From positions 2,790,001 to 2,854,000 of the forward strand of contig NZ_MVDG02000001.1 in the NCBI RefSeq assembly GCF_002008315.2: a DNA stretch of 64,000 bases. The letters are read 5' to 3'. The position numbers and the translations under genes are program-made. The notes beneath the pieces are model-generated. The model saw only the letters and a list, made by a program, of their open reading frames with translations. It searched no databases and was not told the origin of the DNA. This DNA is from Arthrobacter sp. KBS0703 (lineage in GTDB: Bacteria; Actinomycetota; Actinomycetes; Actinomycetales; Micrococcaceae). Positions 36,510 through 53,319 of the stretch are shown piece after piece (position 1 is the stretch's first letter; the number at the start of each line of letters is the position of its first letter).

Positions 36510-37700
36510 ATGACCTTCGTGCAATTGGACCCACCTTCTTCTGACGCTCACATGGTGGATCTCTTCGCCGGTCCTGGTGGACTGGATGTCGCTGCACGCT
36601 GGCTGGGATTGTCCGTGGCCGGTATCGAGTGGGACGAGAATGCCTGCGAAACCAGGCGGGCCGCCGGGCTTGGAACCGTGCAAGGTGACGTACGGGACCA
36701 CGGTCCGGCCGAGTTTCCCCAGGCGAGGATCCTCGCCGGGGGCCCTCCATGTCAGACGTACACCGTGGCCGGGGCAGGTGCTGGGCGTAAGGCACTGGAC
36801 CAGGTCCTTTCCTTCATTGCGCGCATGGCCGATGGGGACGACGTCACAACCGAGCTAACGACGTTGGATGACGAACGAACCGGGCTGGTGCTGCAGCCGC
36901 TGCGATGGGCATTGGAGGCCCATGAGGCGGGAAACGCATACGAGGTGATCGTATTAGAGCAGGTGCCAGCGGTTCTGCCCGTGTGGGAGGCCATGGCGAG
37001 GGCCCTGGAACCACTGGGTTATGAGACCGTGACTGGCATACTCCACGCAGAAGAGTACGGGGTTCCGCAGACCCGCCGCCGCGCGATCCTCATCGCGAAC
37101 CGGTACGGCACGCCCGTACTTCCTGCCCCAACGCATCAGCGGTTCAGGAGAAATGAGGTCAAAGCTTCTATGGACCGACCTGCGTTGCTGCCCTGCCAAA
37201 GCATCGGCGAGACCTTGGACCGGGTAGAGCCCTTTGTGATGATCTCCAATTATGGAACTGGTGGTGATCCGAAGGCCCGCGGTCGGCGCACTTCGAAGGA
37301 ACCGGCTTTCACGGTTACCGGGAAAGTGTCCCGGAACCGCTTGTTCTCCAACGTGGATGAACTCGATCGCCTCAAAGTTTCTGAAGCGGGCCGGCTCCAG
37401 ACGTTCCCCGCTGATTACCCGTGGTCGGGCAAGGACGTCTCGCAACAGATTGGCAACGCCATTCCACCGCGCCTGGCGGCTCACGTCCTAGCAGCAGCTC
37501 TCGGTCGAGAACTTGACGCGGATTTCTTCGACACGATGACAAGAAAACGGTGGACCGAGACGGCCGACGAAACCGCGCCCACACCACAAAACACCGAGGG
37601 TACCCACGACTGTCCTGTGCCCAGGACTGGACCGGGGCGGCGACGATCAGTCGACGAACCGTCCCGGAAGGCCCTCAGCCGCGTGTCGTCACAACGCTGA
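36510..37700 (+). CDS. DNA (cytosine-5) methyltransferase
   Basis: A 396-aa C5 methyltransferase. Motif I is VDLFAGPGGLD near residues 13-23; motif IV is GGPPCQTYTVAG with the catalytic Cys. Motif VI is degenerate (EQVPAVLP in place of ENV), motif VIII is YGVPQTRRRAILIA, and the late motif is QQIGNAIPPRLAAHV. The ATG at 36510 is used; an earlier in-frame ATG (36444) would add 22 unconserved residues. The target-recognition part between VIII and IX is about 110 residues, typical of one specificity. No partner endonuclease is fused. It may protect host DNA from the GmrSD-type or the DISARM-like proteins on either side (DrmMII role). Confidence 0.88.
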   Translation: MTFVQLDPPSSDAHMVDLFAGPGGLDVAARWLGLSVAGIEWDENACETRRAAGLGTVQGDVRDHGPAEFPQARILAGGPPCQTYTVAGAGAGRKALDQVLSFIARMADGDDVTTELTTLDDERTGLVLQPLRWALEAHEAGNAYEVIVLEQVPAVLPVWEAMARALEPLGYETVTGILHAEEYGVPQTRRRAILIANRYGTPVLPAPTHQRFRRNEVKASMDRPALLPCQSIGETLDRVEPFVMISNYGTGGDPKARGRRTSKEPAFTVTGKVSRNRLFSNVDELDRLKVSEAGRLQTFPADYPWSGKDVSQQIGNAIPPRLAAHVLAAALGRELDADFFDTMTRKRWTETADETAPTPQNTEGTHDCPVPRTGPGRRRSVDEPSRKALSRVSSQR

Positions 37701-38195: not shown

Positions 38196-41100
38196 ATGGA
38201 ACCAATGATGGTTCAGCATTCGTGGGCGGGTACGACCTCGCCTCTCGGAAGGTTCGTAGCGGCCGAAACAGAAAGCGCGCTCAACGCTTACCGGGCTCGC
38301 CCGGATCTGGTACGCGAGCACAGCAACATCGAGGCGGCTATCTCTCAGGGCGGCTACGGTCGAAAACAGCTCAACGAGCTTGTCCAGAACGCTGCTGATG
38401 CCATCAAGGAACCGGGCGGCCGCATCAGAGTCGTCCTCACAAGGGATTCACTCTATTGCGCGAACGAAGGAGATCCCTTCACCGAGGCCGGTTTCCGGAC
38501 CCTCATGCTGTCCCACTCCTCCGAGAAGCGTGACGACGAGATCGGCCGCTTCGGCCTCGGGTTCAAATCAGTCATTCAGGTGACCGAAGAGCCCATGATA
38601 TTCAGCCGAAGCGGTTCCGTTGCTTGGAGCCAGGATCAAAGCCGAAAGCTTTTGGAGGGCCTGTATCCGCGCCTGGCTACCTATCCGATTCTGCGTTTGG
38701 CTACCCCGGTGGACCCCGACGTCGAAGCCGCCAAAGACCCCGTCCTCTCGGAGCTTTTTGAATGGGCCACCACGGTGGTCAAGCTTCCCCTGAGTGGCAG
38801 CGTCTCTTGGCTTTCGGACGAAATGAAGAAGTTTCCCGAGGAGTTCCTCCTCTTCTCCGACAAGATTGGTTCCCTTGAATTTGAGGACAGAGCCCAAAGC
38901 TCATCTTGGACGTGGACGGCAACACGCGACGGCAGCCGTGTCAGCCTCTATGACGGCGCAAACAGTAGCGAATGGCTGATATTCAAAAATAGGCACGAGG
39001 TCAGCCCTCAAGCTGCGATCGAGGCCGGAAGCATCGTTGCGCGACAAAATGTTGACGTGACTTGGGCTGTCCCGTTGACGGGCAACCACCGGAGCAAGAT
39101 GGGCCGGTTCTGGAACTACTTCCCGACTCAGCACGAGACTTCGCTTCGCGGCATCGTTAACGCGGCATTCAAAATGAACGAAGACCGCCACAGCATGCTG
39201 GAGACCCTCTACAACCGGGAAATTCTCATTCGGACGCTTCCCCGTATGGTGGCAAGCGCCCTAAACGACCTCAGGACACCAGAGGATCCGGCTCTCTTTC
39301 TGGACATTCTGCCGTCGCGTGACAAGGAGTCAAGTTCGTGGGCCGACTCCGTGATCAACAAACCCATTTTTGAAATTCTGCCGTTCGCACCCTGTCTGCC
39401 GGACAGATCGGGCGTTCTCAGGCTCCCCCGTGAAATCAAAGTACAACCGGCCCTGGAAGAAGCCACTCGACTCATCGCTCTGTGGGACACCTGGGTGCCA
39501 GCGGGCCGGCTCTGGCTACACTCGTCAGCCTTGCGGCGGGAATCCCAGGTAGTACGCATATTGAAGGAAGCGAATCTCAAGCGCGCATCCATCGAGGAGT
39601 GGCTGGAAGAAGTTGTCGCAGGTGGAGATCTCCAGGATTATGAAAACGCCCTGCAGATCGCGGCGATGATCGACAAGTCCTACACCGACTACCGGCCCGC
39701 AATGCGGCGAAGCCGGATTGTGCTCATGTCAGACGGCAGTGTCCAACCGCCAATCACTTCGAGGGTCTTTCTACCCATGAAGGCTGACGACGAGTCAGCC
39801 AATGTTGTGTCCTATGAGCTCATGCATCATGGAAATGCGAATGCTTACCTTCGGGCCCTGGACCTCCAGGCACAGGATGGTCGGGGCATCGTCAATCGTG
39901 TCGCGAGCGATGTCGCCGGAGACTATCTAGATACAGAACTGGCCGGATCTCTTTGGAAATTAACCCGCTCGCTGTCCGTCCCGGAAAGTCTCTCCATACT
40001 TAATGAGAGAACAGAACCGACCAAAATTCTTGTTCGGTGCCGCGATCACAAGTGGCGCACGCTGGGTGAGGTCTGGCTGCCGGGTGGCTTGATTCCCCAA
40101 ACCAATATCGGGGATGAGCACCTTCTAGTAGACGATCAGTTCCACGGCCACGACCTCGCCCTGCTGAGAAATCTTGGCGCACGAACGTCACTTGGGGACT
40201 CGAAGATGGTCCGCGCCGGGGGCACCTACGATTTATGGAAAGGGCAAGAGGCAACCCGCTTTTCAAATGAGTCCCGGAACGGACCGGTCCGTCTTTCCGA
40301 AGCGGGAATCCGCTTTGGCCAGGCTTTGACAACAGATGGACTCCATCTGCTGGCGGATGCATCTGCAGCAACCCGTGCAAAGGTTACGCGAACAATTTTG
40401 GGCCGACCGCAGTACCCGACAAAAGTTGAGTTCAGCAGCGGCTTCAGGACCGCTGAAACAATCGACGGGCCAGACCTTTGGTGGGTAAAAAACCACGGCG
40501 CTTTTGAGACCCCTCTCGGCTTAGTAGACACCAAGCACTGCGTGGGCAAAATCGATGGGATTCCCACAGACTTTTTGCCATTTCCTGGAGAGGAGGAATC
40601 TAGGGCGTTAGGACTGCCCACCGATACACGCAAGATCCAATGGAGTTTCGTCCTTTCATTGGCAGAGCAGCGTCTGCCCATTCTCCAGTTGCATGAACTT
40701 TATGGGGCGCTTGCCGTCCTCGATGTGCGTCCACCGAAGGAGCTTCTGACTCCTCTCAGCGGAGGTCGAAACACACGCTACCTGACGTCTGATGTAGTTC
40801 TGGCTGCGGACCTCGGCTCCCGCGACTATCTGGTTGATACAGCGGACGTGCCCGTCATATACACCGGCCATCCAGATTTGGACGAAGCCCTAGCCGAGAA
40901 CTGGGGGCTCAAGCCGGTCACGGTCGAGTTCCATATCTCAGCCCGCGCCACGCCTATGGATGGGGAGGTACCCGAGAGCATAAAGTCGAAGTTTCCGTTC
41001 CTTAAGCGCGCAGCCAGTGAAGTTGCCGTCCAGACCCTCTGTGTTCCTTGCACTTCCGTGGATGAAGTGCGAACAAACAGCTTCGACTCTCGGGCGGAAG

Positions 41101-42854
41101 CCACGCCCAAAGCGTCCTGCCTCCAGGATGGTGTCCTCTACTACCGGGCCCCGCAGGGTGACCAGGCGTTGCTCACAACAATTCTCGGTGCATTCGGCAG
41201 CAAACGCGCGACCGCGCAGGTCATGCAGTCAATGCGGCAGCTCAAAAAGGACGACGAAGCCCAAGCCCGAATTGGACGAGTCAACAAGCAAAAGACGGAT
41301 GCCGGCAAGATCGCCGAACTTGTTGGTCGCGAGACCCTTCGAAAGCTGATCCCAGACGCGGTCATGAAGATGCTGGATGCTCGTGAACTTGACCTCACCG
41401 ATGAACGCCTGTTCGAGATCGTTAGCAACTTACACGGCAGCAGCCTCCTCAAAGTGCTCAAGCCTGCCCTGTCGGAAGCCGGCATTGAAACGCCTGATCA
41501 GTTCCGCGGGGGGCGCACGGCCCAAGAGTTCGTGAAAGAGCTCGGGTTCTCCCCGGCCATGGCTGGAGAGTCAATCAAGAAAAAGCCGGAACGCGAAGAG
41601 TTCGTTGGACCGGTGGGTTTGAACCCCCTTCACCGGTACCAGGAAACGACCAGCAAGAAGATCGTCGGCCTCCTTGCTGGGGATACCAAGCACCGCCGCG
41701 GGTTGGTGCAGTTGCCCACGGGTGCCGGCAAGACACGCGTAGCCGTTGAATCCGTTATCCGGGATATCAAAGCCTCTCCGAAGGAAAACCACCGCCTGGT
41801 CATCTGGATTGCCCAATCAGAAGAACTTTGCGAGCAGGCCATCGACACGTGGACGTACGTCTGGCAGGCAGCGGGAGTTCCCGGTGAGCGAATGGCGGTG
41901 AGCCGACTGTGGGGCGGGAACAACGCCATACGAGAGGAAACGAAACTCCACCTCATCGTCGCAACCATCCAGACGCTCAGCAGCATCCTGCAGACTCGAA
42001 AGTCCATGTACGAATGGATGTCTAACCCCGATCTTGTCATCATCGATGAAGCCCACGGGGCGACCGCAACGTCATACACTCCGGTTCTCTCTTGGTTCGG
42101 CCGCTCATTCAATGAAAAGTCCCGGTCGTTGCTGGGACTTTCGGCCACGCCGTACCGGGGTACAAACGAGAAAGAGACCGAGCGACTTGTAGCCCGATTC
42201 GGACGTAATCTCATCGAGCCGGATGAGTTCAGCGCGGAAAACGCCCACGAGTATCTTCAAGGTATGGGCGTTCTGGCCAAGGTCAATCATCGCGAGTTGA
42301 AGGGTATCGAGCTCAAGCTGAAGGACATGCGCTCGGCCACAGACGAGGATTCCCAAAGTGCAATGCTTGAGGCCCGGATCGACCTGCAGCACGTAGCGGA
42401 CAGCACTCAGCGCAACGAAGCGATCCTCGACCATATCAAGGCATCCGAGACGAACGGGCCGACCTTGGTATTCGCTGCTTCAGTGGAACACGCCGAAGCT
42501 CTCGCGGCGGTACTGTCCGTAGAAGGAATTCCGGCCGCCGCCATCTCTGGAAAAACGGATCTGGGCCACCGGCGTTCAATCATCGAAGACTTCCGCAATG
42601 GAAAGATCCGTGTGCTGACCAACTTCGATGTGCTTACCCAGGGTTTCGATGCACCCAAGGTCGACGCCGTATACGTTTGCCGGCCTACGTTCTCGCCGAA
42701 TAAATACATCCAAATGATCGGCCGAGGGCTCCGTGGACCGCTCAACGGCGGAAGCCAAGAGGTCCTAATAGTCAACGTCAAAGACAATTTGGACCAATAC
42801 GGCGACAAGCTTGCGTTTACCCAGCTCGACTACTTGTGGAAAGACGGTTCGTAG
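38196..42854 (+). CDS. Sacsin-like GHKL ATPase fused to DEAD/DEAH helicase
   Basis: A 1552-aa protein. The N-terminus holds a sacsin/HSP90-type ATPase: N-box QLNELVQNAADAI near 58-70, then SLYCANEGDPF and the second glycine box GRFGLGFKSV. A central part of about 900 residues is unassigned. The C-terminal 400 residues are an SF2 helicase with LPTGAGKT (near 1173), DEAH (near 1283), LSATPYRGT, LTNFDVLTQGFD and QMIGRGLRG (near 1506). An ATG at 38205, spaced better from GGGGGA, may be the true start. It is the first gene of the operon with the UvrD-like, DrmA and DrmB genes. The fusion suggests ATP-driven DNA remodelling; it does not match a standard DISARM subunit that I know. Confidence 0.85.
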   Translation: MEPMMVQHSWAGTTSPLGRFVAAETESALNAYRARPDLVREHSNIEAAISQGGYGRKQLNELVQNAADAIKEPGGRIRVVLTRDSLYCANEGDPFTEAGFRTLMLSHSSEKRDDEIGRFGLGFKSVIQVTEEPMIFSRSGSVAWSQDQSRKLLEGLYPRLATYPILRLATPVDPDVEAAKDPVLSELFEWATTVVKLPLSGSVSWLSDEMKKFPEEFLLFSDKIGSLEFEDRAQSSSWTWTATRDGSRVSLYDGANSSEWLIFKNRHEVSPQAAIEAGSIVARQNVDVTWAVPLTGNHRSKMGRFWNYFPTQHETSLRGIVNAAFKMNEDRHSMLETLYNREILIRTLPRMVASALNDLRTPEDPALFLDILPSRDKESSSWADSVINKPIFEILPFAPCLPDRSGVLRLPREIKVQPALEEATRLIALWDTWVPAGRLWLHSSALRRESQVVRILKEANLKRASIEEWLEEVVAGGDLQDYENALQIAAMIDKSYTDYRPAMRRSRIVLMSDGSVQPPITSRVFLPMKADDESANVVSYELMHHGNANAYLRALDLQAQDGRGIVNRVASDVAGDYLDTELAGSLWKLTRSLSVPESLSILNERTEPTKILVRCRDHKWRTLGEVWLPGGLIPQTNIGDEHLLVDDQFHGHDLALLRNLGARTSLGDSKMVRAGGTYDLWKGQEATRFSNESRNGPVRLSEAGIRFGQALTTDGLHLLADASAATRAKVTRTILGRPQYPTKVEFSSGFRTAETIDGPDLWWVKNHGAFETPLGLVDTKHCVGKIDGIPTDFLPFPGEEESRALGLPTDTRKIQWSFVLSLAEQRLPILQLHELYGALAVLDVRPPKELLTPLSGGRNTRYLTSDVVLAADLGSRDYLVDTADVPVIYTGHPDLDEALAENWGLKPVTVEFHISARATPMDGEVPESIKSKFPFLKRAASEVAVQTLCVPCTSVDEVRTNSFDSRAEATPKASCLQDGVLYYRAPQGDQALLTTILGAFGSKRATAQVMQSMRQLKKDDEAQARIGRVNKQKTDAGKIAELVGRETLRKLIPDAVMKMLDARELDLTDERLFEIVSNLHGSSLLKVLKPALSEAGIETPDQFRGGRTAQEFVKELGFSPAMAGESIKKKPEREEFVGPVGLNPLHRYQETTSKKIVGLLAGDTKHRRGLVQLPTGAGKTRVAVESVIRDIKASPKENHRLVIWIAQSEELCEQAIDTWTYVWQAAGVPGERMAVSRLWGGNNAIREETKLHLIVATIQTLSSILQTRKSMYEWMSNPDLVIIDEAHGATATSYTPVLSWFGRSFNEKSRSLLGLSATPYRGTNEKETERLVARFGRNLIEPDEFSAENAHEYLQGMGVLAKVNHRELKGIELKLKDMRSATDEDSQSAMLEARIDLQHVADSTQRNEAILDHIKASETNGPTLVFAASVEHAEALAAVLSVEGIPAAAISGKTDLGHRRSIIEDFRNGKIRVLTNFDVLTQGFDAPKVDAVYVCRPTFSPNKYIQMIGRGLRGPLNGGSQEVLIVNVKDNLDQYGDKLAFTQLDYLWKDGS

Positions 42855-44659
42855 TGCTCGCCGAGATTGAACTGGACGAAAGTCAGCGAGACGTTGCGGA
42901 AGCCGATCCGGATGCGCGAATGTTCGTGACGGCCGCGGCCGGGCAAGGGAAAACAGAGGTCCTTCTGGCCCGGGTAAAGACCTTGGTTGAAGATGGCTTG
43001 AATCCTGCCGATGAAATCCTTGTGCTCAGCTTTTCCCGGGCGGCTGTCGAAGCTGTCAGGAAACGGGCACGCATCCATGATCTCGATGGTCTTCAAATCC
43101 GCACTTTCGACTCCTTTGCGGCGCAGATTCTGATCGACATGGACGAAGAGACTCTGGGCGACAGCTTTGACGCCCGGATCCGAAAAGCCACGAAGTATAT
43201 AGCTGGAGACGAGACGCCCGATCGGCTCACTTATCTGCAGCACATCCTGGTCGACGAAGCTCAGGACCTCGTGGGAGACCGCGCGGAGCTAGTCTTGGCG
43301 TTGTTCTCCGTCCTCGGTGACGACTTCGGTTTCACAGTGCTCGGCGACCCATTGCAAGGCATTTACGACTTTCAATTGGAAGAATCCGAATCCAAACTCA
43401 CCTCCGCGGAGCTCATCGAGACCCTCGTCAAGGAGTTTGGCGCCGAGCAACAGACGCTGGCGAAGCACTACAGGGCGGTGACCGATCGCACGAGGGAGCT
43501 GATCTCCGTTGGCGACGAGATCCGCAACCTGGGAGCGCTCGACAACCCAACGTGCGAGGCCGCGCATAGCCTGCTCGACGACTTCCGCAGAGAAGTTTCC
43601 AGCACCTCCGTGCTGAATGAGTCTGGTGCGCTCAGTCCGAATGACGGCGACACCACCGCCCTACTGTGTTCGACCAATTACGAAGTCCTCATCGCGAGTG
43701 AACTTTTGTGGGAGAACGGGTACCCGCACCTGATCCGGCGGAAGGCACAGGACATGAGTGTGGCGCCTTGGGTTCATCAGGTGTTCAGGGACCTGGAAGA
43801 CAGGACGTATGACGCCGATGAGATAAAGTCACGCCTGCACCGGCTCTTCGGAGACGCAGCTGCCGACCGCTGGCTTGCGTTGAAGACAGCGGAGGGCAAC
43901 TTCTCAGCGTACGACTCACTAAATGTCCCCCAGCTCAGCCAACGGCTGCGCAGCAGATCGATCCCGTTGACCCTCACGGTGGCCGACGTCGCCCCGTTGA
44001 TCGTTTCGACAGTACATCGGGCCAAAGGCCTCGAGTTCACCAATGTCCTTTATCTGCAACCGGAGTTCGGATCTCCCGCCGCAGAACAGAACGCAGCGAC
44101 CTTGAAGCAGAAGTACGTAGCCCTGAGCCGGGCTCGAGAAGAGATCGTCTCCACCAAACTGCCTAAAAAGATCCTCAAGCGCGCCGACGGGTCCACTGGG
44201 CGATGGCTGGAGAAGGCTTACGGGAAATTCGGTCAATACACGGCACGGATGGAGTTCGTGAACTCCGACATTGACGACATTTCGCCCTATTTCCCGGCAG
44301 ACGGAGACGCTCAGGCGGTGCAGAACAGCCTTGTACTGGATGACCTTCTGGGAGAAGTCGTTTCCGGCCGCATTGACTCCCCACCGGAGCCCGGTGAAGT
44401 TCCCCGCTACGAGCTAACTACCAGCAACGGCCGCGTGCTTGGCCGAACCAGTCAATCTTTTGCGTACGCGCTGAAGAAGAATTTCAGCTTCAAAGGACAC
44501 CCCGGCCAAGAGTGGCCCATCGCCTTTACCGGCGCCCGGGTCACATCCATCGAGTGCGCCACCGGTCATCCGGAGGAGACCAAACTCGCAGGACTCGGTT
44601 CCTCCGGAATGTGGCTGGTACCCCGGCTTACCGGACTTATCAGCCGGATTAAGGACTAG
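42854..44659 (+). CDS. UvrD/Rep-like SF1 helicase
   Basis: A 601-aa SF1A-type helicase. The Q/GKT region is ESQRDVA..TAAAGQGKTEVLLARV (Walker A near 26-33); DEAQDL is near 133, GDPLQGIYDF follows, HRAKGLEF is near 386 and YVALSRAREEI near 420. The last 150 residues are an unassigned C-terminal domain. The start is set at GTG 42854 (TAGTG overlap with the preceding stop, GGAAAG in front); a GTG at 42836 would add 6 residues but lacks a ribosome site. It is coupled tightly in the operon between the sacsin-helicase and drmA. Compact UvrD-like partners are not part of canonical DISARM. Confidence 0.85.
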   Translation: MLAEIELDESQRDVAEADPDARMFVTAAAGQGKTEVLLARVKTLVEDGLNPADEILVLSFSRAAVEAVRKRARIHDLDGLQIRTFDSFAAQILIDMDEETLGDSFDARIRKATKYIAGDETPDRLTYLQHILVDEAQDLVGDRAELVLALFSVLGDDFGFTVLGDPLQGIYDFQLEESESKLTSAELIETLVKEFGAEQQTLAKHYRAVTDRTRELISVGDEIRNLGALDNPTCEAAHSLLDDFRREVSSTSVLNESGALSPNDGDTTALLCSTNYEVLIASELLWENGYPHLIRRKAQDMSVAPWVHQVFRDLEDRTYDADEIKSRLHRLFGDAAADRWLALKTAEGNFSAYDSLNVPQLSQRLRSRSIPLTLTVADVAPLIVSTVHRAKGLEFTNVLYLQPEFGSPAAEQNAATLKQKYVALSRAREEIVSTKLPKKILKRADGSTGRWLEKAYGKFGQYTARMEFVNSDIDDISPYFPADGDAQAVQNSLVLDDLLGEVVSGRIDSPPEPGEVPRYELTTSNGRVLGRTSQSFAYALKKNFSFKGHPGQEWPIAFTGARVTSIECATGHPEETKLAGLGSSGMWLVPRLTGLISRIKD

Positions 44660-44663
44660 GAGA

Positions 44664-47600
44664 ATGACAGTGTCGAAACTGGACAGTAAATACGCCTTCC
44701 GCCGCGAAATCGTTGATCGCCTTGTCACCGACCTCTACGGACCCGGCGCTTCCGACGAGCTCATTACGGAGCGCCCTCTTGAGCGGTATGTGACAGGAGT
44801 GCTCTGGCCTGCTGCAGATGACTCTTATGCCGAGGCCCCGGACGAGCCGGAGTCCGTAGCTGCCACTTCCGGCGAGGCCTCGGTCGACAGCCCTGTGGCG
44901 AACGCACGGCTGACCTACCCGAGCAGCGTAGGCATGACGGTCTCCGTGGACACTACACTTTCTACCGTTCTGCTCGTCTCGCCTGCTGCCGCCAGATATG
45001 CCCCAATCCCTTCTGTCCGGGACAGCGGTAGCAAGCGCCGCGACGCATATGACTGGCAGCGCTTGCCTGCAGAACTCCCCGAGGTGCAAATCGACCTGGC
45101 TTCAGCTGGGCCCCAAAGGCATCTGCTGGAGGGAGGGGCTTTGGAGCTCTACGCCTTGGTACGCATTCCCGAAGAGACTGTCGTGACCGTGACCGTGGTG
45201 CTGCGGAACACGCAGCCCAAACCTGACCCCACATCAGACAAAGACGTGGCGTGCTGGTTCCAGGCTGGCCTTTCCGTTCACACCGAGAAGCCCGCTCTTG
45301 TGGATCGTTCGAAGCTGCGCACCACGCTTCCCTCGGACCCCGACCTGGCGTCTTCCGAACTCCTCTACCGAAACCACATGGTCTTCGGCGCCGGACACGG
45401 CTGTGCGGTCGATGTGGAGGCGTCCGACGTCGATGGCCGGCTCTGTCAGCGAGTGACCACGACGTTTGTTCCCCGGCAAGATGTCCACAGGTCCATGGCT
45501 GGCGTCAGCAACGCCAACCTGTCGCTCTCATTCATGGGTTCGGCCACGCGCGAAGATGTGGTCGCGCAGCTGAACTTACTCGCGGAGGACTACGCATCGT
45601 GGATCGCTGCATCCAGTGACTCGGTGACAGCAGACGGTCAGACCCAGGTTCCGCCGCACTTGCGCGGTGTCGCTGCCGACCATATGAAGCAGGCGGGGAC
45701 GGCGCACGACCGAATCAAAGCGGGCATCCAGTTGCTGGTCAACGATGAGAGAGCCTTTGAGGCATTTCAGCTGGCGAATCAGGCCATGCACATGCAGCGT
45801 TCACGCCAGGATTGGGTCCGCAACGGCGCCAAGGGCGAGTTCGTGCTTGGCGCCCAGGCATGGCGGCCCTTCCAGATTGCATTCATCCTCATTAATTTGC
45901 CGTCGGTAACCGACGACCAGCACCCGGAACGCGACATTGCTGATCTCCTCTGGTTCCCCACAGGCGGAGGGAAGACAGAAGCCTATCTGGGGCTTGTCGC
46001 CTACCTCCTGCTGCTCCGACGGCTGAGGAACACAAGCGTCCGGGGCGTGGCCGTGATCATGCGCTATACCCTGCGGCTTCTGACGATCCAGCAATTTGAG
46101 CGTGCTGCCATGCTCATTTGTTCCCTCGAATCTGTTCGACTGGCGAATGAGGACCGGGTCGGCGGTGCACCGTTCGGCATCGGACTCTGGGTTGGCGGAG
46201 GCGCGACGCCAAACGACATCGCAACTGCACGGACAAATCTGGGAAAGCTTCGAAACAATCAGGAAGTCGTCGAGGGAAATCCGAAGCAGATCGAAGCCTG
46301 CCCTTGGTGCGGCACTCGGCTCACGGTCGACGACTATCGGATCGTGAAAGTGCCCTCCGACCGGATGCTCGTCAGCTGCTCCAACACGGCATGCGAGTTC
46401 GAGGACGGCCTACCCGTTCACATCATCGACACAGACGTCTACCGGGAACGTCCAGAACTCGTGATCGGGACGGTGGACAAATTTGCCGGTATGTCGTGGC
46501 GAGGTGAAATCGCAACCCTGTTGGGACGTATCTCTCCTGCCGATCTGGGCCCGGACCTCATCATCCAGGACGAACTGCACCTCATCTCGGGGCCTCTCGG
46601 TTCAACCGTTGGTCTCTTTGAAACAGCGGTCGACCTGGCGGCAAGCGGCATCGGACGTGAAGTTGGCTCCGCCAGTCGAAAGCCTAAAATCATTGCCTCG
46701 ACAGCAACAATCCGACGAGCCAAGGATCAGATCCGGTCCGTCTTCAACCGCGAATCCAGCCTGTTCCCGCCGCCCGGGCTAGACCCCGACGATTCCTTCT
46801 TCGCCAACAAGGCGCCCTCTGATCAGTTCGGAACACGGCAATATGTCGGCGTCCTGGCATCTGGCACGAGCCACGCCACGCTTATGGTTCGCACCTACGC
46901 ATCCTTACTTCACTCATCCAACGTCATCGAAGGGGCCGCAACCGAGGACCGCGACCCCTACTGGACGCTAGTCGGCTACTTCAATAGCCTGCGCGTGCTT
47001 GGCTCGGCATACCTGCAGGTGTACGACGACGTCAGAGCTCGCCTTAACCTTCTGGCCAAACGGGAGGGCAGGCTGGGGGCGCGTGGAATCCAGTTGAGCG
47101 AGCTCACGAGCCGCGTCGAAAACCATAAGATCCCCGAGGCTCTAAAGTCCCTGGAGAAGAGCCTGATGAGTGGCCTCACGCCTGAAGACGTGGTGCTGGC
47201 TACCAACATGATCTCAGTCGGCCTGGATGTGGATCGTCTGGGGTTGATGGCCGTCATGGGTCAGCCGCAGTCCAGCGCTGAGTACATCCAGGCGACCAGC
47301 CGGGTAGGGCGTCAGCACCCGGGCCTTGTTGTGACAATCTTCAATGCTGCGCGGACACGGGACCGGTCGCACTACGAATCGTTCAACGACTTTCACGGTG
47401 CACTTTACCGGGCGGTGGAAGCCACCAGTGCCACACCTTTCGCGGCTCGGTCGCGCGACCGAGGACTTCATGCCACTCTCGTCTCTGCGCTTCGGATGCT
47501 CGTCCCCGAGCTGCGGAGTACTGCTGGTCACGTCCGGGACGAGTCCCCAACAGTTGACGGAATCATGTCGTGGATAGGCGACCGTGTCGCGGCTGTCGAT

Positions 47601-47870
47601 ACGGAAGAAGCCCCAGCAACTCGCGAGGAGCTCGAGCGGCTGCTGAACATCTGGCGAAAGGCTGCCCTGGCGGACGCCGACCTGCCCTACGAAGGCAAGA
47701 AGAATTCGCCACGCTCTCTTCTTATCGATTCCAGCAAAGCCCTCGAAGATCCCGACTTCGTCTACAGCACGAGCAGCATCCCCTGGCCGACACCCCGAAG
47801 CATGCGCGACGTGGACGCAGAAACCGCGCTCCGGCCGGCCCCTATGAGGAAGGACGCCTCCCTTGGCTAG
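44664..47870 (+). CDS. drmA: DISARM helicase DrmA
   Basis: A 1068-aa SF2 helicase-like protein of the DrmA type. Walker A is FPTGGGKTEAYL (near 431-442). A four-Cys zinc knuckle (CPWCG..CSNTACEF) lies around 545-575, DELHLISGPLG is near 635, and SVGLDVDRLGLM and QATSRVGRQHPGL (near 850-890) are the motif V/VI equivalents. The first 300 residues are a non-helicase N-terminal domain. DrmA forms a complex with DrmB that binds DNA in DISARM anti-phage defence. AGGAG precedes the ATG, five bases after the UvrD-like stop, and the 3' end overlaps drmB. Confidence 0.9.
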   Translation: MTVSKLDSKYAFRREIVDRLVTDLYGPGASDELITERPLERYVTGVLWPAADDSYAEAPDEPESVAATSGEASVDSPVANARLTYPSSVGMTVSVDTTLSTVLLVSPAAARYAPIPSVRDSGSKRRDAYDWQRLPAELPEVQIDLASAGPQRHLLEGGALELYALVRIPEETVVTVTVVLRNTQPKPDPTSDKDVACWFQAGLSVHTEKPALVDRSKLRTTLPSDPDLASSELLYRNHMVFGAGHGCAVDVEASDVDGRLCQRVTTTFVPRQDVHRSMAGVSNANLSLSFMGSATREDVVAQLNLLAEDYASWIAASSDSVTADGQTQVPPHLRGVAADHMKQAGTAHDRIKAGIQLLVNDERAFEAFQLANQAMHMQRSRQDWVRNGAKGEFVLGAQAWRPFQIAFILINLPSVTDDQHPERDIADLLWFPTGGGKTEAYLGLVAYLLLLRRLRNTSVRGVAVIMRYTLRLLTIQQFERAAMLICSLESVRLANEDRVGGAPFGIGLWVGGGATPNDIATARTNLGKLRNNQEVVEGNPKQIEACPWCGTRLTVDDYRIVKVPSDRMLVSCSNTACEFEDGLPVHIIDTDVYRERPELVIGTVDKFAGMSWRGEIATLLGRISPADLGPDLIIQDELHLISGPLGSTVGLFETAVDLAASGIGREVGSASRKPKIIASTATIRRAKDQIRSVFNRESSLFPPPGLDPDDSFFANKAPSDQFGTRQYVGVLASGTSHATLMVRTYASLLHSSNVIEGAATEDRDPYWTLVGYFNSLRVLGSAYLQVYDDVRARLNLLAKREGRLGARGIQLSELTSRVENHKIPEALKSLEKSLMSGLTPEDVVLATNMISVGLDVDRLGLMAVMGQPQSSAEYIQATSRVGRQHPGLVVTIFNAARTRDRSHYESFNDFHGALYRAVEATSATPFAARSRDRGLHATLVSALRMLVPELRSTAGHVRDESPTVDGIMSWIGDRVAAVDTEEAPATREELERLLNIWRKAALADADLPYEGKKNSPRSLLIDSSKALEDPDFVYSTSSIPWPTPRSMRDVDAETALRPAPMRKDASLG

Positions 47871-49956
47871 AAAGACCTATGCTGCCCGACGCAGCCAGTT
47901 GATCTCCACGTTCGGAGTAGGGAGTCTATTCCCCGCCGAAAACAACAGCTTCATGATCACAAGCATTGATCAATGGGACAAGAAGCATTTGAAGCCGGTC
48001 AGTGAGCCGCGCCTGGCACGCAGCCTCGGGGTATCAGAGCTTCTGCTGCCGCCAGCCGGCACGCGCGGGAAGATCCCGGTTGTGCGCTTTCCCCAGATGC
48101 TCGTGTGCCCCAACTGCAATCGAATCGGACGGGTTCAGCAGCTGCAAGCATCGTACGAGGACCCGAAGTGCGGCTTGTGCAAGTCACTGGCGCCGCTGAC
48201 CCCCTCCCGATTCGTTGTGGCGTGCGAAGACGGACATATCGATGACTTCCCATATTCCTATTGGGTCCATGGTCACACCCCGAGCGACGACGCGGATCAT
48301 CTGCTGTCTCTCGCGTCCGAGGGCCGAACATCGTCGCTTGCCGACATGGTTGTGCGGTGCTCGTGCGGAAAGTCTCGAACGATGGCCGATGCGTTCAACT
48401 CAATTGCCTTGAAGGAAATGAAGTGCCAGGGGAACCGCCCCTGGCTCGGCTGGGGCTACAGCGAACGTGGATGCGGCAAAGCCTCAAAAACGGTTCAGCG
48501 CGGTGCCTCAAATGTCTGGTTCCCGGTGGTTCGGTCGGCAATCTCGATCCCGCCATATTCCGAATTTCTTGCCAAGGTGGTCACATCAAAAGCGTCGCAG
48601 CTCAGCCAACCGCAGGCTCTGGAGCCCGGTTCCACCTGGGTTCTAGAAGGCGTGGTCAATGAATTTGACGGCCGCTTCTCCGTCGACGAACTCCGCGCCG
48701 AGATAAAACGCCAGTTCCACGGCAGTGAGGAAGCTGAACTTTCCGAGGACCAGCTGCGGGAGCAAGAGTTCCTCGCGCTGATGAACGGCCGCCGTGACAG
48801 CCCGGACACCGATTTTGTAGCTGAGAAAGTCACCGTACCGGAGGCCCATCAACACTGGATCAAGGCGGCACGAAAGGTCACCCGGCTCAGGGAGGTCCGC
48901 GCCCTATACGGCTTTAGCCGTCTACACCCCCGGAGCGAAGACAAGCCTGACGCCAAGTTATCGCCGCTGTCACCCGACGACAACCGGCAGAATTGGCTGC
49001 CCGCAATTGAGACGCTGGGTGAGGGACTCTTTGTGGCGCTGGACCGATCACAGGTTGAGGCTTGGGCTGAAACGGACTTCGCAGCCGGCAGGGAGAAGAC
49101 TCTCCGCCTGAATGCGAAGCGCGCAGCTGAGCAGCGCGGCCAGGACCCCATTCCCGTCAGCATTGTTGAGACCCTGATCCACACCCTCTCCCACATCATC
49201 ATCGACCAGCTCTCGCTGGACGCTGGCTACCCCGCGTCTTCTATTCGGGAACGCCTCTATGTAGGTCCTGAGCAAGTCGGAGTGCTCTTGTATACGGCAT
49301 CGTCCGACTCTGCAGGCAGCCTGGGCGGCATCGCTGCACAGGCGAGCCCCAGGCGCCTTGGCCCCTCCTTGGATGAAGGACTGTTCCGCACGTCCTGGTG
49401 TTCAGCGGATCCTGTTTGCATCGAGTCTCGAGGTTCGGGAACCGATGCCCGAAACCTCGCGGCATGCCACTGCTGCGTCCTTGTGCCGGAAACAAGCTGC
49501 GAGCTGTTCAATTCCAATCTCGACCGGGGCTCCTTGTTTGGCGTCCATGGTCAGATCGGGCTTGGCTTTATGGACTGGGCGGCCCTTAACCCCGTTGCCA
49601 CTACCGGCGCCGAAAAACCAGGCAGCGTTTCGGACGTTTCCCATGACGACAACGTCCCTGTCAGCGTGCGTCAAAGCCCCTGGTTGACAGTCTTCGCCGA
49701 ATCCGGTCCCGAGCTCCAGGAACTCATTCCCGAGCTCGTCGAGGTAAATGTGGAACTTGGAGACTGGGGCGCCGATATTGGCCCCGAGAACCAGTGGCAA
49801 GTTGATCTATCCTGGGCGGCTTCGCGCGTGGCGGTACTTGTCGAACGGGATGACGAACGCGACGACTGGCTCGCGGAACAAGGTTGGACTACCTACCACA
49901 CGAACGATTTTGCACCCGCGGACCTCGCGGACAAGCTAGCCGACAAGGTCTACTAA
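47863..49956 (+). CDS. drmB: DISARM protein DrmB (DUF1998)
   Basis: A 697-aa DrmB-type protein. The start region ARRSQLISTFGVGSLFP and the Cys-rich block CPNC..CGLC (near 82-105) followed by CEDGHIDDFPYSYWVHG (near 120) are the family's hallmark. The DUF1998 part around 435-545 has LIHTLSHIIIDQLS, ERLYVG..GVLLYT and the cluster CHCCVLVPETSCELFN. It works with DrmA. The start is a TTG (47863) overlapping the drmA stop by 8 bases, with AGGAAGGA in front. The gene ends five bases before a strong hairpin. No PLD-type drmC follows, which is unusual for DISARM. Confidence 0.9.
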   Translation: MARKTYAARRSQLISTFGVGSLFPAENNSFMITSIDQWDKKHLKPVSEPRLARSLGVSELLLPPAGTRGKIPVVRFPQMLVCPNCNRIGRVQQLQASYEDPKCGLCKSLAPLTPSRFVVACEDGHIDDFPYSYWVHGHTPSDDADHLLSLASEGRTSSLADMVVRCSCGKSRTMADAFNSIALKEMKCQGNRPWLGWGYSERGCGKASKTVQRGASNVWFPVVRSAISIPPYSEFLAKVVTSKASQLSQPQALEPGSTWVLEGVVNEFDGRFSVDELRAEIKRQFHGSEEAELSEDQLREQEFLALMNGRRDSPDTDFVAEKVTVPEAHQHWIKAARKVTRLREVRALYGFSRLHPRSEDKPDAKLSPLSPDDNRQNWLPAIETLGEGLFVALDRSQVEAWAETDFAAGREKTLRLNAKRAAEQRGQDPIPVSIVETLIHTLSHIIIDQLSLDAGYPASSIRERLYVGPEQVGVLLYTASSDSAGSLGGIAAQASPRRLGPSLDEGLFRTSWCSADPVCIESRGSGTDARNLAACHCCVLVPETSCELFNSNLDRGSLFGVHGQIGLGFMDWAALNPVATTGAEKPGSVSDVSHDDNVPVSVRQSPWLTVFAESGPELQELIPELVEVNVELGDWGADIGPENQWQVDLSWAASRVAVLVERDDERDDWLAEQGWTTYHTNDFAPADLADKLADKVY

Positions 49957-49961
49957 TGCTA

Positions 49962-49993: not shown

Positions 49994-50004
49994 AAAACCG
50001 GGTC

Positions 50005-50994
50005 TTAGTCCAGGAAGTACTCGTAGCTCAGCGGCTTCAGGTTCTCCGGCGAAGGCCGCCAATCCGGGTAGACACTCATCGTCCCGTCGTCGCTGGTGAT
50101 GGAACCATCGAGGTGGCGCTCCCACGGGATATCAGCCACCACTACCAAGTCCGTCAGGCCATAGTCATTAGCGTGCTTAACCTCATTGCGCGTCAGGATG
50201 ACTTTCTGCACGTATCCCTGAGAGCCCTTCACTTCGATGTGACGCTCTTCGTCACCACGTATTGCCAGCAAATCGTAAGAGCGGAAGGCGCCGACGTCTT
50301 CGACACTGTAGCCAGCTGCTTCGTAGTGAACAATTGCCTGCCGGACGGCCTGCATCTCAATCGCCTTCTTCAATATAGGGTCGGCGCAGAAGCCCGCGTA
50401 GCGCTGTCTCACGCCATTTTGTCCGCTTACGGGCGGTGCGACGAGTGGCCGGTCGAACCCGCCCCAGTCGCTGTCAGGGAGCAATTCGGGCACGGCGTCG
50501 ATGACCTGGCGGGGCATCTTGAACAAATAGCCCTGATTTGGCTTTAGTCCGGCTCTCCGGTGCCGGTTGAAAGGAAAATGGATATCCTGCTTGGGCTTGG
50601 CATACTCGGCACGAAGCGAGTCAAGGATCCCAAGAATGACCCCCTCGTCCTCACGCAAGTCATCTAGTAATTGTGGACGAGGAAGAGGCTTGTAATCAGT
50701 CAGGGGAATCGTATCGGCGCTCTCCCCCAGCCAGCTGCCTGAGTCAGACCGAAGTGCACCGGCGACTCGAGAGACCCCGTAGATCCCGGGTTTCCAGCGC
50801 ATTGGGTTCTTCCTACTTACCCAGTGCAGAACTACGTCGCCGACTTTCACATCATGCATTCGGTCATGGTTGCCGGTCGGTGGAGCAATGAGTTGCGTTC
50901 CGAATTTCGCTTCAAAAGCGATTTCCATCCAGTAACGCTGCGAGGCGTCGCCGTCCCACCAACGCGCCTTGTTCCCAACCGCACTAACAGTCAT
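50005..50994 (-). CDS. EVE-like plus DUF3883 nuclease-type protein
   Basis: A 329-aa protein in two parts. Residues about 1-110 resemble an EVE/PUA-like reader domain (RYWMEIAFE, KVGDVVLHWVSRKNP, GIYGVSRVAG), a fold that binds modified bases. Residues about 215-310 are a DUF3883 domain of the PD-(D/E)XK type, with YDLLAIRGDEERHIEVKGSQG, whose Asp and Glu-x-Lys (near 253) are the expected metal-binding core. A modification-dependent nuclease is a fair inference. A GTG at 51015 would add 7 residues; the ATG at 50994 follows GGGGGAG closely. An inverted repeat, ATATTC-GT-GAATAT (51018-51031), lies just upstream. It is last in the minus-strand operon. Confidence 0.78.
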   Translation of the reverse strand: MTVSAVGNKARWWDGDASQRYWMEIAFEAKFGTQLIAPPTGNHDRMHDVKVGDVVLHWVSRKNPMRWKPGIYGVSRVAGALRSDSGSWLGESADTIPLTDYKPLPRPQLLDDLREDEGVILGILDSLRAEYAKPKQDIHFPFNRHRRAGLKPNQGYLFKMPRQVIDAVPELLPDSDWGGFDRPLVAPPVSGQNGVRQRYAGFCADPILKKAIEMQAVRQAIVHYEAAGYSVEDVGAFRSYDLLAIRGDEERHIEVKGSQGYVQKVILTRNEVKHANDYGLTDLVVVADIPWERHLDGSITSDDGTMSVYPDWRPSPENLKPLSYEYFLD

Positions 50995-51036
50995 TACTCC
51001 CCCAATAGTTGTCACTTATATTCGTGAATATTGAAA

Positions 51037-53319
51037 CTACTTTGTACCAAGCAACTCCGACGGTTTTCCGCTCCAAGACACGACCAAGCCGTCGCGGGCG
51101 CGTGTAGCCGCGACATATAGCAGCGACCGTTCACGAAGAATGGCGTCAGCCTGCTCCGCCGGCGCTAGGCCCTTGACCTGATAGGAAGCCGGCAGGGTTT
51201 GGTCCGAAATCCCGAAAAGAACCACTCTCGTGAATTCCATACCCTTCGACCGGTGCATGGTCATCACTGACGGCACGCCAGGTACCGTCGCTGCAGTAGC
51301 TGTCCTGGCTTCGAGATCGCGTTCATTCAGCCCGTTGATGACCTTGCCGACCTGGAAATTGGAGCGGACCAGGATTCCGACGGTCTCCAGCGGCACCCCT
51401 TCGTCTGTCCACCTCCGCAGATAGTCAGCAAGGTTGTCCAGTTCCTCAGCGATCGAGGCAGAGGCTATTTCCTCTGGCCGCGGCCCTACCCGCGAAGAGG
51501 TATAGCCGTTAATAGACTCCTGATCGCCTTCAATGTCCGTCACCGGAGCTCCGCTAAGAAGTCCGACGGCGTAGGCCAGGTTCTGCTGGGTGGTGCGGTA
51601 ATTGAGCGTCAACCGGCGTGACCGACCGACGATGCCAATTCCGAAGCGGGACAACGGGACCTTCTGACCGTAGATACGCTGATGCGAATCCTCTGCGATG
51701 AAAAGGTCATCCGGCCCCTGCTGGACCAGTTCCCGGAGAAACAGCCAGTGGCCGGCGTGCAAGTCCTGGCCTTCATCGATCAGCACATGGTCAGCAAGAC
51801 GTGCCCCGTTGGCCTCTGCACGCTGGCGAAGCACCAGAGCTGCAAGGTGCGCCAGCTCCACGAACGAGGCATGCATTTCGATCCGGTTGTAGTACCGGTA
51901 GGATTCCACGACCTTCCAGACTGCAAGCCGCTTCGCCCGGTTCAAGGCTGTACCCCGGCCGGCGCGGGGCACCTTCAGGTATTCGTCCTTGCCGCTGATG
52001 AAGTTGGGCAGGATCACCGTCTCGTACTCCTGCTGGAGGAATGTCGGATTGGCTAGCTCGAGCTCCAGCTGATAATCGACGTCGGCCAGGGCGGACTCCC
52101 ACTGCTGGCGTGCACCATCTGTGTCCAAGATCTTCCCTGGAGCAGAGACCTCCAGCCCGAAAAGGTTCTTCATGGCACGGCGCTGCTCCGTTTCCTGAGC
52201 ACCGCGAAACACCTTGCTGACGAGTGAATCAACGCCGGAAACATAGGTGCCGCGTGCTCCTGGCTTGGCCGCCCGCGGAAGATCGGCGTCCAGCTTCGAC
52301 AATCCGCTTTCCAGCGAGTCAGCAAGTGTCGTCGTGTAGGTCGTCAGAACAATCCGCGATGCCGGTTCAGCCGCGGCCAGCATCCGGGCGCGGTGGAGAA
52401 GGACCACCGTCTTGCCCGTTCCGGCACCACCGGAGAGACGGAAGGAGCCGTTGTAGCGGCGTTCCGAGTAGACACGTTGTTCCGGATGAAGGAACGTGCG
52501 CCAGGAATCGAAGTCTCCACCCTCGATGACCTTTTTGAGCTCGTCCGAGTTGTCGCCCACGAACGTGAATTGCATCCTCGTGGCGGGATGTTCCAGTGAC
52601 TTCCGGATCTTCTCCTCTTCTGTCGCCTGCGGATCGTCCACGTAGCGGCTCAGCGCGAGCTTGTCCTGGACTTCCTGGACGGAGGTGCCGGCAGCCAGTT
52701 CAAGGAGGGCAGTTGCCTGCCACTCGGGCGCCTCGTCCAAGACGTCCAGGAGATCTTCGTCCGAGGACGCAGCGAATGCCCGGGCCACAAGGTCCAAGCC
52801 GAGGCCAAGCTCTGAAACCAATTCAGCCAGATCCATACCGCACCCAAGAAGCGGGTTCGTCCAGGGTTCGGCCGTCTCGCCGCCCGGCGGCTCTTGAACC
52901 TCGGACTCCACTTCGGCCTCCGGCGTCCGAGCATCAGGCACAACCGGCGCAACAGGCGGAACTGGCGGGACAGATGCGCCGCCGTCGGGCGTGGACGCCC
53001 GGATGACCTCCAGGACGCCGTTGACGGAGTTCACCTGAAGCACGCTGGAACGGGCGATGTCGATTGCCTCGTCGTGCGGCCAGGCGCCGTAGTAGAAGTA
53101 GTGCGGGATGGTGTCGAAGGCGACCTTGAAGAGCACGGCCCGGTAGTTGAGGTCAATCCGGCCGGTCCGCACGCGGGGGTCCGCGGGAGTGTGCATGGGT
53201 TCGATATGGAGCCCGGGCGCGGTGTCGTCCTTCTGGAGCTTCTCGAAGAAGGAGTACACCTTGTTCTTCATGGTGCCGTCGATCTTGTCCTTTTGCTTGA
53301 TCCATGTCACCAGCGCCAT
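51037..53319 (-). CDS. UvrD-type helicase with RelE-like N-terminal domain
   Basis: A 760-aa protein. Residues about 1-110 look like a RelE/ParE-type fold (FFEKLQKDDTAPGLHIEPM, the LNYRAVLFKV strand, HYFYYGAWPHDEAIDIA), as found in mRNA interferases or their inactive relatives. A variable Pro/Glu-rich linker follows to about 165. The SF1 helicase core has GGAGTGKTVVLLHRARM (near 305), DEGQDL (near 518), LNYRTTQ, MHRSKGMEFTRVV (near 695) and YVAATRARDGL (near 738). It starts one base after the stop of the large DUF1998 helicase and is coupled to it. Confidence 0.85.
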   Translation of the reverse strand: MALVTWIKQKDKIDGTMKNKVYSFFEKLQKDDTAPGLHIEPMHTPADPRVRTGRIDLNYRAVLFKVAFDTIPHYFYYGAWPHDEAIDIARSSVLQVNSVNGVLEVIRASTPDGGASVPPVPPVAPVVPDARTPEAEVESEVQEPPGGETAEPWTNPLLGCGMDLAELVSELGLGLDLVARAFAASSDEDLLDVLDEAPEWQATALLELAAGTSVQEVQDKLALSRYVDDPQATEEEKIRKSLEHPATRMQFTFVGDNSDELKKVIEGGDFDSWRTFLHPEQRVYSERRYNGSFRLSGGAGTGKTVVLLHRARMLAAAEPASRIVLTTYTTTLADSLESGLSKLDADLPRAAKPGARGTYVSGVDSLVSKVFRGAQETEQRRAMKNLFGLEVSAPGKILDTDGARQQWESALADVDYQLELELANPTFLQQEYETVILPNFISGKDEYLKVPRAGRGTALNRAKRLAVWKVVESYRYYNRIEMHASFVELAHLAALVLRQRAEANGARLADHVLIDEGQDLHAGHWLFLRELVQQGPDDLFIAEDSHQRIYGQKVPLSRFGIGIVGRSRRLTLNYRTTQQNLAYAVGLLSGAPVTDIEGDQESINGYTSSRVGPRPEEIASASIAEELDNLADYLRRWTDEGVPLETVGILVRSNFQVGKVINGLNERDLEARTATAATVPGVPSVMTMHRSKGMEFTRVVLFGISDQTLPASYQVKGLAPAEQADAILRERSLLYVAATRARDGLVVSWSGKPSELLGTK

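What the first reader, a model, noticed from the sequence alone, without database searches (positions are those of the whole stretch)
38196..49956. DISARM-like operon without PLD nuclease, built on a sacsin-ATPase helicase and a UvrD helicase
The genes drmA and drmB are clear by motif and are coupled to two genes that canonical DISARM lacks: a 1552-aa GHKL-ATPase/DEAD-helicase fusion and a 601-aa UvrD-like helicase. No drmC (PLD), drmD (SNF2) or drmE is visible. The four genes form one compact, overlapping unit (gaps -1, +4 and -8). This may be an undescribed DISARM subtype in which the nuclease step is supplied by another protein.
Basis: partly seen in the sequence, partly recalled or inferred. 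Interest (0 to 1): 0.85.

Follow-up and report, generated by a model that had tools for sequence, protein, structure and literature searches.

The report
Sacsin-helicase DISARM variant beside ARMADA
A soil bacterium carries a four-gene predicted antiviral system built on the known DISARM helicase pair plus two extra helicases and no recognised nuclease of its own; the set recurs across actinobacteria and often lies beside a second defence system, ARMADA, that does carry a nuclease domain.

Summary
At 38196-49956 (+) lie four abutting genes: a 1552-aa sacsin-type GHKL ATPase fused to an SF2 helicase (SacHel), a UvrD-like helicase (UvrD_A), DrmA and DrmB. DrmA and DrmB pass NCBI's curated cut-offs and match solved Serratia DrmAB. 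Of 77 SacHel loci from other genomes, 57 have SacHel just upstream of DrmAB, 41 of them with UvrD_A between. In a 119-row DrmA tree the window's clade has 59 rows; 57 carry both extra genes. The DrmC profile matched 0 of 57 and 0 of 16 SacHel-DrmAB loci, against 17 of 44 other DrmA loci. This is a widespread, apparently undescribed DISARM-family variant; canonical class 1/2 features (drmC, drmD) are not met. That ArmC supplies the missing nuclease is a testable inference, not shown: some relatives have the DrmB tail without ArmC. No phage assay was available.

The parts
36444..37700 (+). C5 cytosine methyltransferase (418 aa), 495 bp before SacHel; likely self-marking partner, exchanged between loci
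   Evidence: Pfam DNA_methylase 6.2e-31; best PADLOC model is a general type II methyltransferase (295 bits), DrmMII only 74; a C5 methyltransferase within 1 kb of the block in 49 of 73 loci
38196..42854 (+). SacHel: sacsin-type GHKL ATPase (about residues 34-357) fused to an SF2 helicase (about 1145-1513)
42854..44659 (+). UvrD_A: UvrD/Rep-like SF1 helicase (601 aa) with an unassigned C-terminal domain (about 443-601)
44664..47870 (+). DrmA, short form (1068 aa)
   Evidence: NF038325 above cut-off; PDB 7s9v_A 2.4e-170
47863..49956 (+). DrmB (697 aa) with MrfA-type Zn-binding domain
   Evidence: NF038324 above cut-off; MZB above cut-off; PDB 7s9v_B 1.9e-74
49654..49953 (+). C-terminal extension of DrmB, inactivated Vsr-like domain shared with ArmC
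   Evidence: profile finds ArmC C-terminus at 7.4e-8; profile-profile 98.1% to ArmC tail, 81.2% to Vsr
50005..51015 (-). NOV_C (DUF3883-type) protein, 336 aa, last gene of the convergent operon
   Evidence: Pfam NOV_C 32.9 bits, cut-off 22.1
51037..53319 (-). ArmD-type UvrD helicase (760 aa)
   Evidence: Pfam UvrD; 31% to the helicase at the armD place of an E. coli plasmid array, N-terminal domain 32% over 98 residues, 4.6e-11
53321..59719 (-). ArmC-type YprA helicase (2132 aa) with a putative Vsr/MTES-type nuclease around residues 1773-1828
   Evidence: DEAD, Helicase_C, MZB above cut-off, weak MTES_1575 below cut-off; motifs PDFLLK 1787 and IYTDGFTFH 1804
53360..53584 (-). C-terminal tail of ArmC, homologous to the DrmB extension
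59719..64000 (-). ArmB-type methyltransferase (1539 aa; continues to 64338 outside the window)
   Evidence: 34% to the E. coli plasmid homologue

Best explanation
This is a DISARM-family predicted anti-phage system of a distinct actinobacterial lineage ('Sac-DISARM'): SacHel, UvrD_A, DrmA and DrmB made as one unit, usually with a nearby, exchangeable C5 methyltransferase that marks self DNA. Most likely mechanism (inferred): DrmAB loads on single-stranded 5' ends of incoming or replicating phage DNA and translocates, as reported for Serratia DrmAB. SacHel, a GHKL gate of the sacsin/MutL/gyrase type joined to an SF2 motor, acts as an ATP-driven clamp and loader that licenses DrmAB. UvrD_A is a second motor that strips or unwinds the DNA. 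In this lineage no nuclease is recognised in the four genes; DNA destruction is left to a partner. In the sister lineage that is a NERD nuclease fused to a UvrD-type helicase. Here the likeliest partner is the convergent ARMADA operon, whose ArmC carries a Vsr-type nuclease domain. Shown by sequence: gene content, order, conservation, absence of drmC, linkage to ARMADA, shared domain. Inferred: every mechanistic step.
For: DrmA/DrmB identity; recurrence of the order in 41 of 77 SacHel loci with UvrD_A, 57 of 77 with SacHel next to DrmAB; one DrmA clade with 57 of 59 rows carrying both genes; UvrD_A and DrmB distances follow DrmA (rho 0.83 each), SacHel 0.55, n 56, no permutation of 300 as high; no DrmC match in SacHel-DrmAB loci (0 of 57, 0 of 16) and no HKD motif there; NERD catalytic residues kept in 21-22 of 22 aligned NERD-UvrD proteins; ARMADA linkage; shared tail.
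Against: No phage data. The UvrD_A C-terminal 160 residues and SacHel 370-1120 have no assigned fold and could hide a nuclease. The C5 methyltransferase does not co-evolve clearly with the block (rho 0.16, n 46, 2 of 300 permutations as high; 0.04, n 48). 29 of 49 SacHel-DrmAB genomes searched had no ArmC match, so ArmC cannot be the general nuclease.
Confidence: 0.55

Rival explanations
1. The four genes are self-sufficient: they block phage DNA by helicase loading and translocation alone, or leave degradation to host nucleases of the AdnAB/RecBCD type. ARMADA next door is an independent system that merely shares the defence island.
For: 29 of 49 SacHel-DrmAB genomes searched had no ArmC match; DrmAB is proposed to block replication by loading and DrmC is dispensable (PMC9142583, passages); defence genes cluster in islands anyway (other defence genes at 23353-29832 and 33586-35820).
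Against: Linkage within 20 kb in 15 of the 20 ArmC-bearing genomes among those 49, in four relative arrangements; the tail shared by DrmB and ArmC; a plasmid with both in one co-directional array.
Confidence: 0.35
2. UvrD_A or the middle of SacHel holds an unrecognised nuclease, so the system has its own nuclease after all.
For: UvrD_A replaces a NERD-UvrD fusion at the same place; its conserved C-terminal domain (443-601) has no assigned fold; no fold was tested for SacHel 370-1120 alone.
Against: No Pfam, NCBIfam or PADLOC nuclease model matched in the rows shown (lists capped at 25 for some).
Confidence: 0.15
3. It is a DNA repair or housekeeping helicase cluster, not defence.
For: The SacHel motor is closest to RadD (110 bits, far below its cut-off of 720), UvrD_A to UvrD, and the YprA family has a repair branch (PMC12458937, section 3).
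Against: Patchy presence (window's DrmA clade in 10 of 206 genomes of the genus); DrmA and DrmB pass DISARM models; GmrSD, Hhe-like and ARMADA neighbours.
Confidence: 0.03

Closest known systems
DISARM (Ofir et al. 2018, recalled; PMC9142583 passages)
   Same: DrmA and DrmB orthologues by curated models and by match to the solved complex; methyltransferase nearby
   Different: no DrmC, no DrmD or recognised DrmE in the operon; SacHel and UvrD_A added; DrmA shorter at the N-terminus
ARMADA Type II (PMC12458937)
   Same: the convergent neighbour has its gene order armA-armB-armC-armD; DrmB of the window shares the ArmC tail
   Different: the four-gene operon itself has no BrxHII-like helicase or PglX-like methyltransferase
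Mza (PADLOC MzaB/C/D)
   Same: Mza-like loci in Arthrobacter have a free-standing relative (1112 aa, about 53% identical) of SacHel's N-terminal two thirds, usually next to a C5 methyltransferase
Tiamat (TmtA)
   Same: the GHKL region 18-436 matches TmtA (164 bits)
   Different: the rest of the protein does not; SacHel has an SF2 helicase and partners
Gabija GajB / UvrD
   Different: no GajA nuclease seen next to it; own C-terminal domain
Druantia type III (DruE)
   Same: best PADLOC match of P0007 is DruE3 (277 bits)
   Different: operon order and partners are those of ARMADA

Membership tests
DISARM (canonical) | DrmA helicase | tested here: met
   NF038325 994 bits, cut-off 950; PDB 7s9v_A
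DISARM (canonical) | DrmB (DUF1998/MZB) next to DrmA | tested here: met
   NF038324 464 bits, cut-off 240; overlaps drmA by 8 bp
DISARM (canonical) | DrmMI or DrmMII methyltransferase in the operon | tested here: inconclusive
   a C5 methyltransferase lies 495 bp upstream but matches general type II models better than DrmMII (295 against 74 bits)
DISARM (canonical) | DrmC (PLD nuclease) | tested here: not met
   0 of 57 and 0 of 16 SacHel-DrmAB loci, 17 of 44 others; no PLD within 0.9 Mb
DISARM class 1 | DrmD (SNF2) in the operon | tested here: not met
   no DrmD row among those shown for the four proteins (25 rows at most each); the nearby SNF2 gene belongs to the ARMADA operon
DISARM class 1 | N-terminal EVE-like domain of DrmA (as given in PMC12458937) | tested here: not met
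   alignment to Serratia DrmA starts at residue 69 here against 216 there, leaving no room
DISARM class 2 | DrmE | tested here: inconclusive
   no DrmE row shown, but the lists for P0001 and P0002 were capped at 25
DISARM (canonical) | anti-phage activity | not testable with these tools
   none
ARMADA Type II (neighbouring operon) | order BrxHII-like helicase, PglX-like methyltransferase, YprA helicase, GajB-like helicase | tested here: met
   same order in an E. coli plasmid with 33, 34, 27 and 31% identity (that this plasmid array is ARMADA is judged from its order and products, it is not the strain tested in the paper)
ARMADA Type II (neighbouring operon) | RelE-like N-terminal domain of ArmD | tested here: inconclusive
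   no RelE found by sequence; the domain is homologous to that of the E. coli plasmid protein
ARMADA Type II (neighbouring operon) | Vsr-type nuclease at the end of ArmC | tested here: inconclusive
   MTES_1575 match below its cut-off (20.5 of 38.2 bits); motifs present
Mza | MzaB, MzaC, MzaD partners | tested here: not met
   none of these families was found at the window locus; they accompany the free-standing SacN protein
Tiamat | TmtA match over the protein's length | tested here: not met
   only residues 18-436 match in the best row (profile 10-425 of 1538)

The most novel reading that the evidence does not exclude
Sac-DISARM and ARMADA form one composite immune machine in this lineage: DrmB has taken up the inactivated Vsr-like tail of the ARMADA helicase ArmC (or the reverse) as a docking or dimerisation module, so that the nuclease-less DISARM core hands phage DNA to the ArmC nuclease. 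The two operons were joined several times, in different arrangements, because they work together.
Probability: 0.3. Interest if true: 0.82.

Novelty: new variant of a known kind. Interest (0 to 1): 0.66.

Why it matters
DISARM is widespread, yet how its DrmAB core is gated and what destroys phage DNA is unsettled, since DrmC is dispensable (PMC9142583, passages). A large natural lineage that keeps DrmAB, lacks DrmC and adds a GHKL-helicase gate and a UvrD motor makes that question directly testable by gene removal. The repeated linkage to ARMADA, another YprA-helicase system, and the shared dead-nuclease tail suggest cooperation of the kind reported for ARMADA with Druantia III in E. coli (PMC12458937). 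Tools that look for DISARM through drmC, drmD or drmE could misfile this class.

Tried and rejected
Nuclease in UvrD_A: the model matches UvrD over 1-442 only; residues 443-601 were not folded alone, so a nuclease there is neither shown nor excluded. The viral fold library was not searched. A Foldseek search of the SacHel 1-1120 model gave Hsp90 and sacsin rows; residues 370-1120 are barely tested.

C5 methyltransferase as a co-evolving partner: rho 0.16 with DrmA (n 46; 2 of 300 permutations as high), 0.04 when only adjacent genes are used (n 48), and 0.05-0.08 with SacHel or its segments (10 to 52 of 300 permutations as high). At most a weak signal.

Vsr as the missing nuclease: Vsr-family matches lie in 30 of 57 and 5 of 16 SacHel-DrmAB loci but none at the window locus; they fit mismatch repair beside C5 methyltransferases (recalled knowledge).

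DrmD reading: the SNF2 gene after drmB in mycobacteria first looked like drmD; ArmC lies further on in most of those genomes, so it opens an ARMADA operon.

Against the DrmB tail as an ArmC dock: of 14 distinct named or window genomes with the tail, 8 have ArmC and 6 (L010, L013, L016, L049, L069, L071) had no ArmC match; five of the six keep an ArmD-type helicase and L013 keeps NOV only. The ArmC tail by itself resembles Vsr only weakly (19%).

RelE by sequence: none. Promoter and terminator scans at 37500-38400 and 49700-50300 found nothing beyond chance.

Sampling limits: the SacHel set (77 loci) is the best 80 of 315 matches to two peptide patterns and is chosen by SacHel. The DrmA set (60 regions) was chosen by me from the places; unfetched places were mostly long, class-1-like DrmA, so class 1 DISARM is undersampled. 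L073 was left out of tree and distances, L156 of the distances. The first gene picker mislabelled several loci; counts come. The script ended with an error after printing all loci but L176. The tree is FastTree with local support and warns of long branches. Nine MAG records with SacHel relatives (L066, L067, L070, L077-L079, L081, L083, L084) and L036 showed no DrmAB; some are short.
Full report
What is there. Four + strand genes at 38196-49956 abut or overlap (junctions). P0001 (1552 aa) has a sacsin-type GHKL ATPase at its N-terminus and an SF2 helicase at its C-terminus; P0002 is a UvrD-like helicase; P0003 and P0004 are DrmA and DrmB by curated NCBI cut-offs and by match to the solved Serratia DrmAB. 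The helicase and GHKL motifs looked for (names recalled) are intact. Upstream is a C5 methyltransferase (36444-37700). The nearest named relatives of these proteins are in Arthrobacter and Pseudarthrobacter.

Is it more than chance? A scan of genome contigs with 18 aligned SacHel proteins gave 77 loci. After ORF and HMM annotation, 60 of the 77 hold DrmA, and 57 have SacHel less than 3.5 kb upstream in the same direction: 41 with UvrD_A between, 11 with a NERD-UvrD fusion, 5 with neither. Of the other three, L019 and L037 have SacHel in the opposite direction and L073 is frame-broken. The 17 without DrmA are 7 Mza-like loci (L020, L021, L023, L024, L027, L029, L072), L036 and 9 MAG records. 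From the other side, DrmA was sought in 394 genomes of the class (64 with a match) and I fetched 60 of the listed places: 16 have SacHel (15 with UvrD_A, 1 with NERD-UvrD). DrmC profile matches: 0 of 57 and 0 of 16 SacHel loci, 17 of 44 other DrmA loci; a PLD motif pattern was found in none of the SacHel-DrmAB loci and in 13 of the others (Fisher p 0.0026 for 0 of 16 against 17 of 44). Two loci are in both sets.

Descent. In a FastTree of 119 DrmA rows the window falls in a clade of 59 rows (local support 100): 57 SacHel+UvrD_A, and L019 and L158 with UvrD_A but no SacHel directly upstream. Of its 16 rows from the set not chosen by SacHel, 15 have both genes. A separate group of 17 rows holds SacHel+NERD-UvrD (12) and SacHel directly before DrmA (5). 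The drmC-bearing loci lie outside both. Across 56 loci UvrD_A and DrmB distances follow DrmA (rho 0.83 each), SacHel less (0.55), the C5 methyltransferase hardly (0.16, n 46). In another set of 48 loci SacHel follows DrmA at 0.74 overall and at 0.48 in residues 720-1120.

The neighbour. The convergent operon from 51037 to 67385 (-) is armA-armB-armC-armD, followed by a NOV_C gene. The same order and similar sizes occur in an E. coli plasmid with 33, 34, 27 and 31% identity, the ArmD N-terminal domain included. This fits ARMADA Type II as described in PMC12458937 (abstract, sections 3, 4 and 26 and a term search read). In 206 genomes of the genus the window's DrmA clade is in 10 and ArmC in 14; 9 have both, in each case with about 5.5 kb between the two matches; the tenth (L178, the Arthrobacter AL12 record) keeps ArmD and NOV only (Fisher p 1.3e-11; related genomes, so not independent). 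Among the 57 SacHel-DrmAB loci of the first set I gave 50 to a search; 49 genomes were held. ArmC is in 20 of the 49, in 15 of these within 20 kb of drmA (convergent, divergent, or co-directional downstream or upstream) and in 5 on another contig. For comparison, 18 of 197 genomes of the class have a match to ArmC at the same cut-off, Druantia-like proteins included. A Tsukamurella plasmid carries in one direction an annotated cytosine methyltransferase, a 464-aa protein, a UvrD helicase, DrmA, DrmB, ArmA, ArmB, ArmC (in two pieces), an ArmD-type helicase and a relative of UvrD_A (39%). ArmD-type genes also directly follow drmB in L028, L052, L163 and L167.

A shared tail. DrmB of the window's lineage is about 100 residues longer than most: 15 of the SacHel loci listed, the window and one repeat included. 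A profile of this tail, searched against 18,721 open frames, finds beyond DrmB only ArmC (7.4e-8 in the window, 5.5e-7 in L156) and then, at 0.004 and worse, mainly Vsr proteins. Profile comparison gives 98.1% to the ArmC tail and 81.2% to Vsr, whose active-site segment has no counterpart in the tail; controls with C5 methyltransferase, NOV and DrmC gave 0.14% or less; the ArmC tail against Vsr gave only 19%. The tail matches the Tsukamurella ArmC C-terminus at 1.8e-9. PMC12458937 reports inactivated Vsr domains at the end of many Type II ArmC proteins. UvrD_B (ArmD-family) matches lie in 13 of 15 loci with the tail and 6 of 59 without (related loci, and one of the six, L041, is a general UvrD match). 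Against a strict link, six genomes with the tail had no ArmC match: L010, L013, L016, L049, L069, L071.

How it probably works. Serratia DrmAB binds 5' overhang DNA and is released from autoinhibition on loading; DrmC did not co-purify and is dispensable (PMC9142583, passages). I infer that SacHel adds or replaces gating by an ATP-driven clamp with its own motor, UvrD_A adds a second motor, the methyltransferase marks self, and the nuclease comes from outside: the NERD-UvrD fusion in the sister lineage, ArmC's Vsr domain where ARMADA is adjacent, host nucleases elsewhere. None of these steps has been tested.

What is known. Searches of the open-licence library: sacsin with DISARM, drmA, drmB; with antiphage and helicase (none); with phage and defense system; DISARM with GHKL, UvrD, DUF1998; ARMADA/DISARM/Druantia/YprA since 2025; DISARM with drmB, drmE, UvrD, NERD; Tiamat/TmtA/GHKL; DISARM, Actinobacteria, subtype. 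From the listings, and the papers opened, I found no description of this operon; subscription papers are not held and most listed papers were seen as listing only. PMC12458937 speaks of 'many uncharacterized DISARM-like' classes without naming sacsin or GHKL, so its authors may hold this clade in tables that I could not read. PMC3710099 (passages) treats sacsin as an Hsp90-like and HEPN protein; PMC13118837 (passages) holds nothing relevant.

Verdict. A real, widespread, apparently undescribed variant of the DISARM family: new variant of a known kind. The link to ARMADA and the shared dead-nuclease tail are the most interesting part and are open to direct test.

Noticed in passing
window 23353-29832 (-): 2159-aa protein with HEPN_Swt1, DUF4011, AAA_11/12 helicase, MTES_1575 and DUF3320 domains (PADLOC PDC-S37 927 bits, Hhe 405 bits): another predicted defence protein in the same island.
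   Followed up: partly
window 33586-35820 (-): GmrSD-type restriction enzyme with a RAMA domain.
   Followed up: partly
window 30121-30810 (-): DUF6994 protein of unknown function.
   Followed up: no
L118, L172-L175 (similar L117, L119-L126): Another DrmAB context: DrmA-DrmB followed by a ~975-aa protein with sigma-70 domains, in L118 then an AIPR protein and a C5 methyltransferase.
   Followed up: partly
[not shown]
   Followed up: partly
L127, L129, L130, L131: A gene family of 507-690 aa open frames (no Pfam match in L127) takes SacHel's place before NERD-UvrD-DrmA-DrmB.
   Followed up: partly
L028, L052, L163, L167: ArmD-type helicase directly downstream of drmB in the same direction, with no other ARMADA gene seen in the fetched stretch.
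   Followed up: partly
L158 (G172): Member of the window's DrmA clade without SacHel; its UvrD_A lies in a 1045-aa open frame.
   Followed up: no
G016:C1:1280857-1285473: A second SacHel (30% identical) about 25 kb from the close relative of the window's one.
   Followed up: no
L184 / L183 (Tsukamurella plasmid NZ_LR134452.1): Co-directional plasmid array joining a cytosine methyltransferase, UvrD, DrmA and DrmB to ArmA-ArmD.
   Followed up: partly
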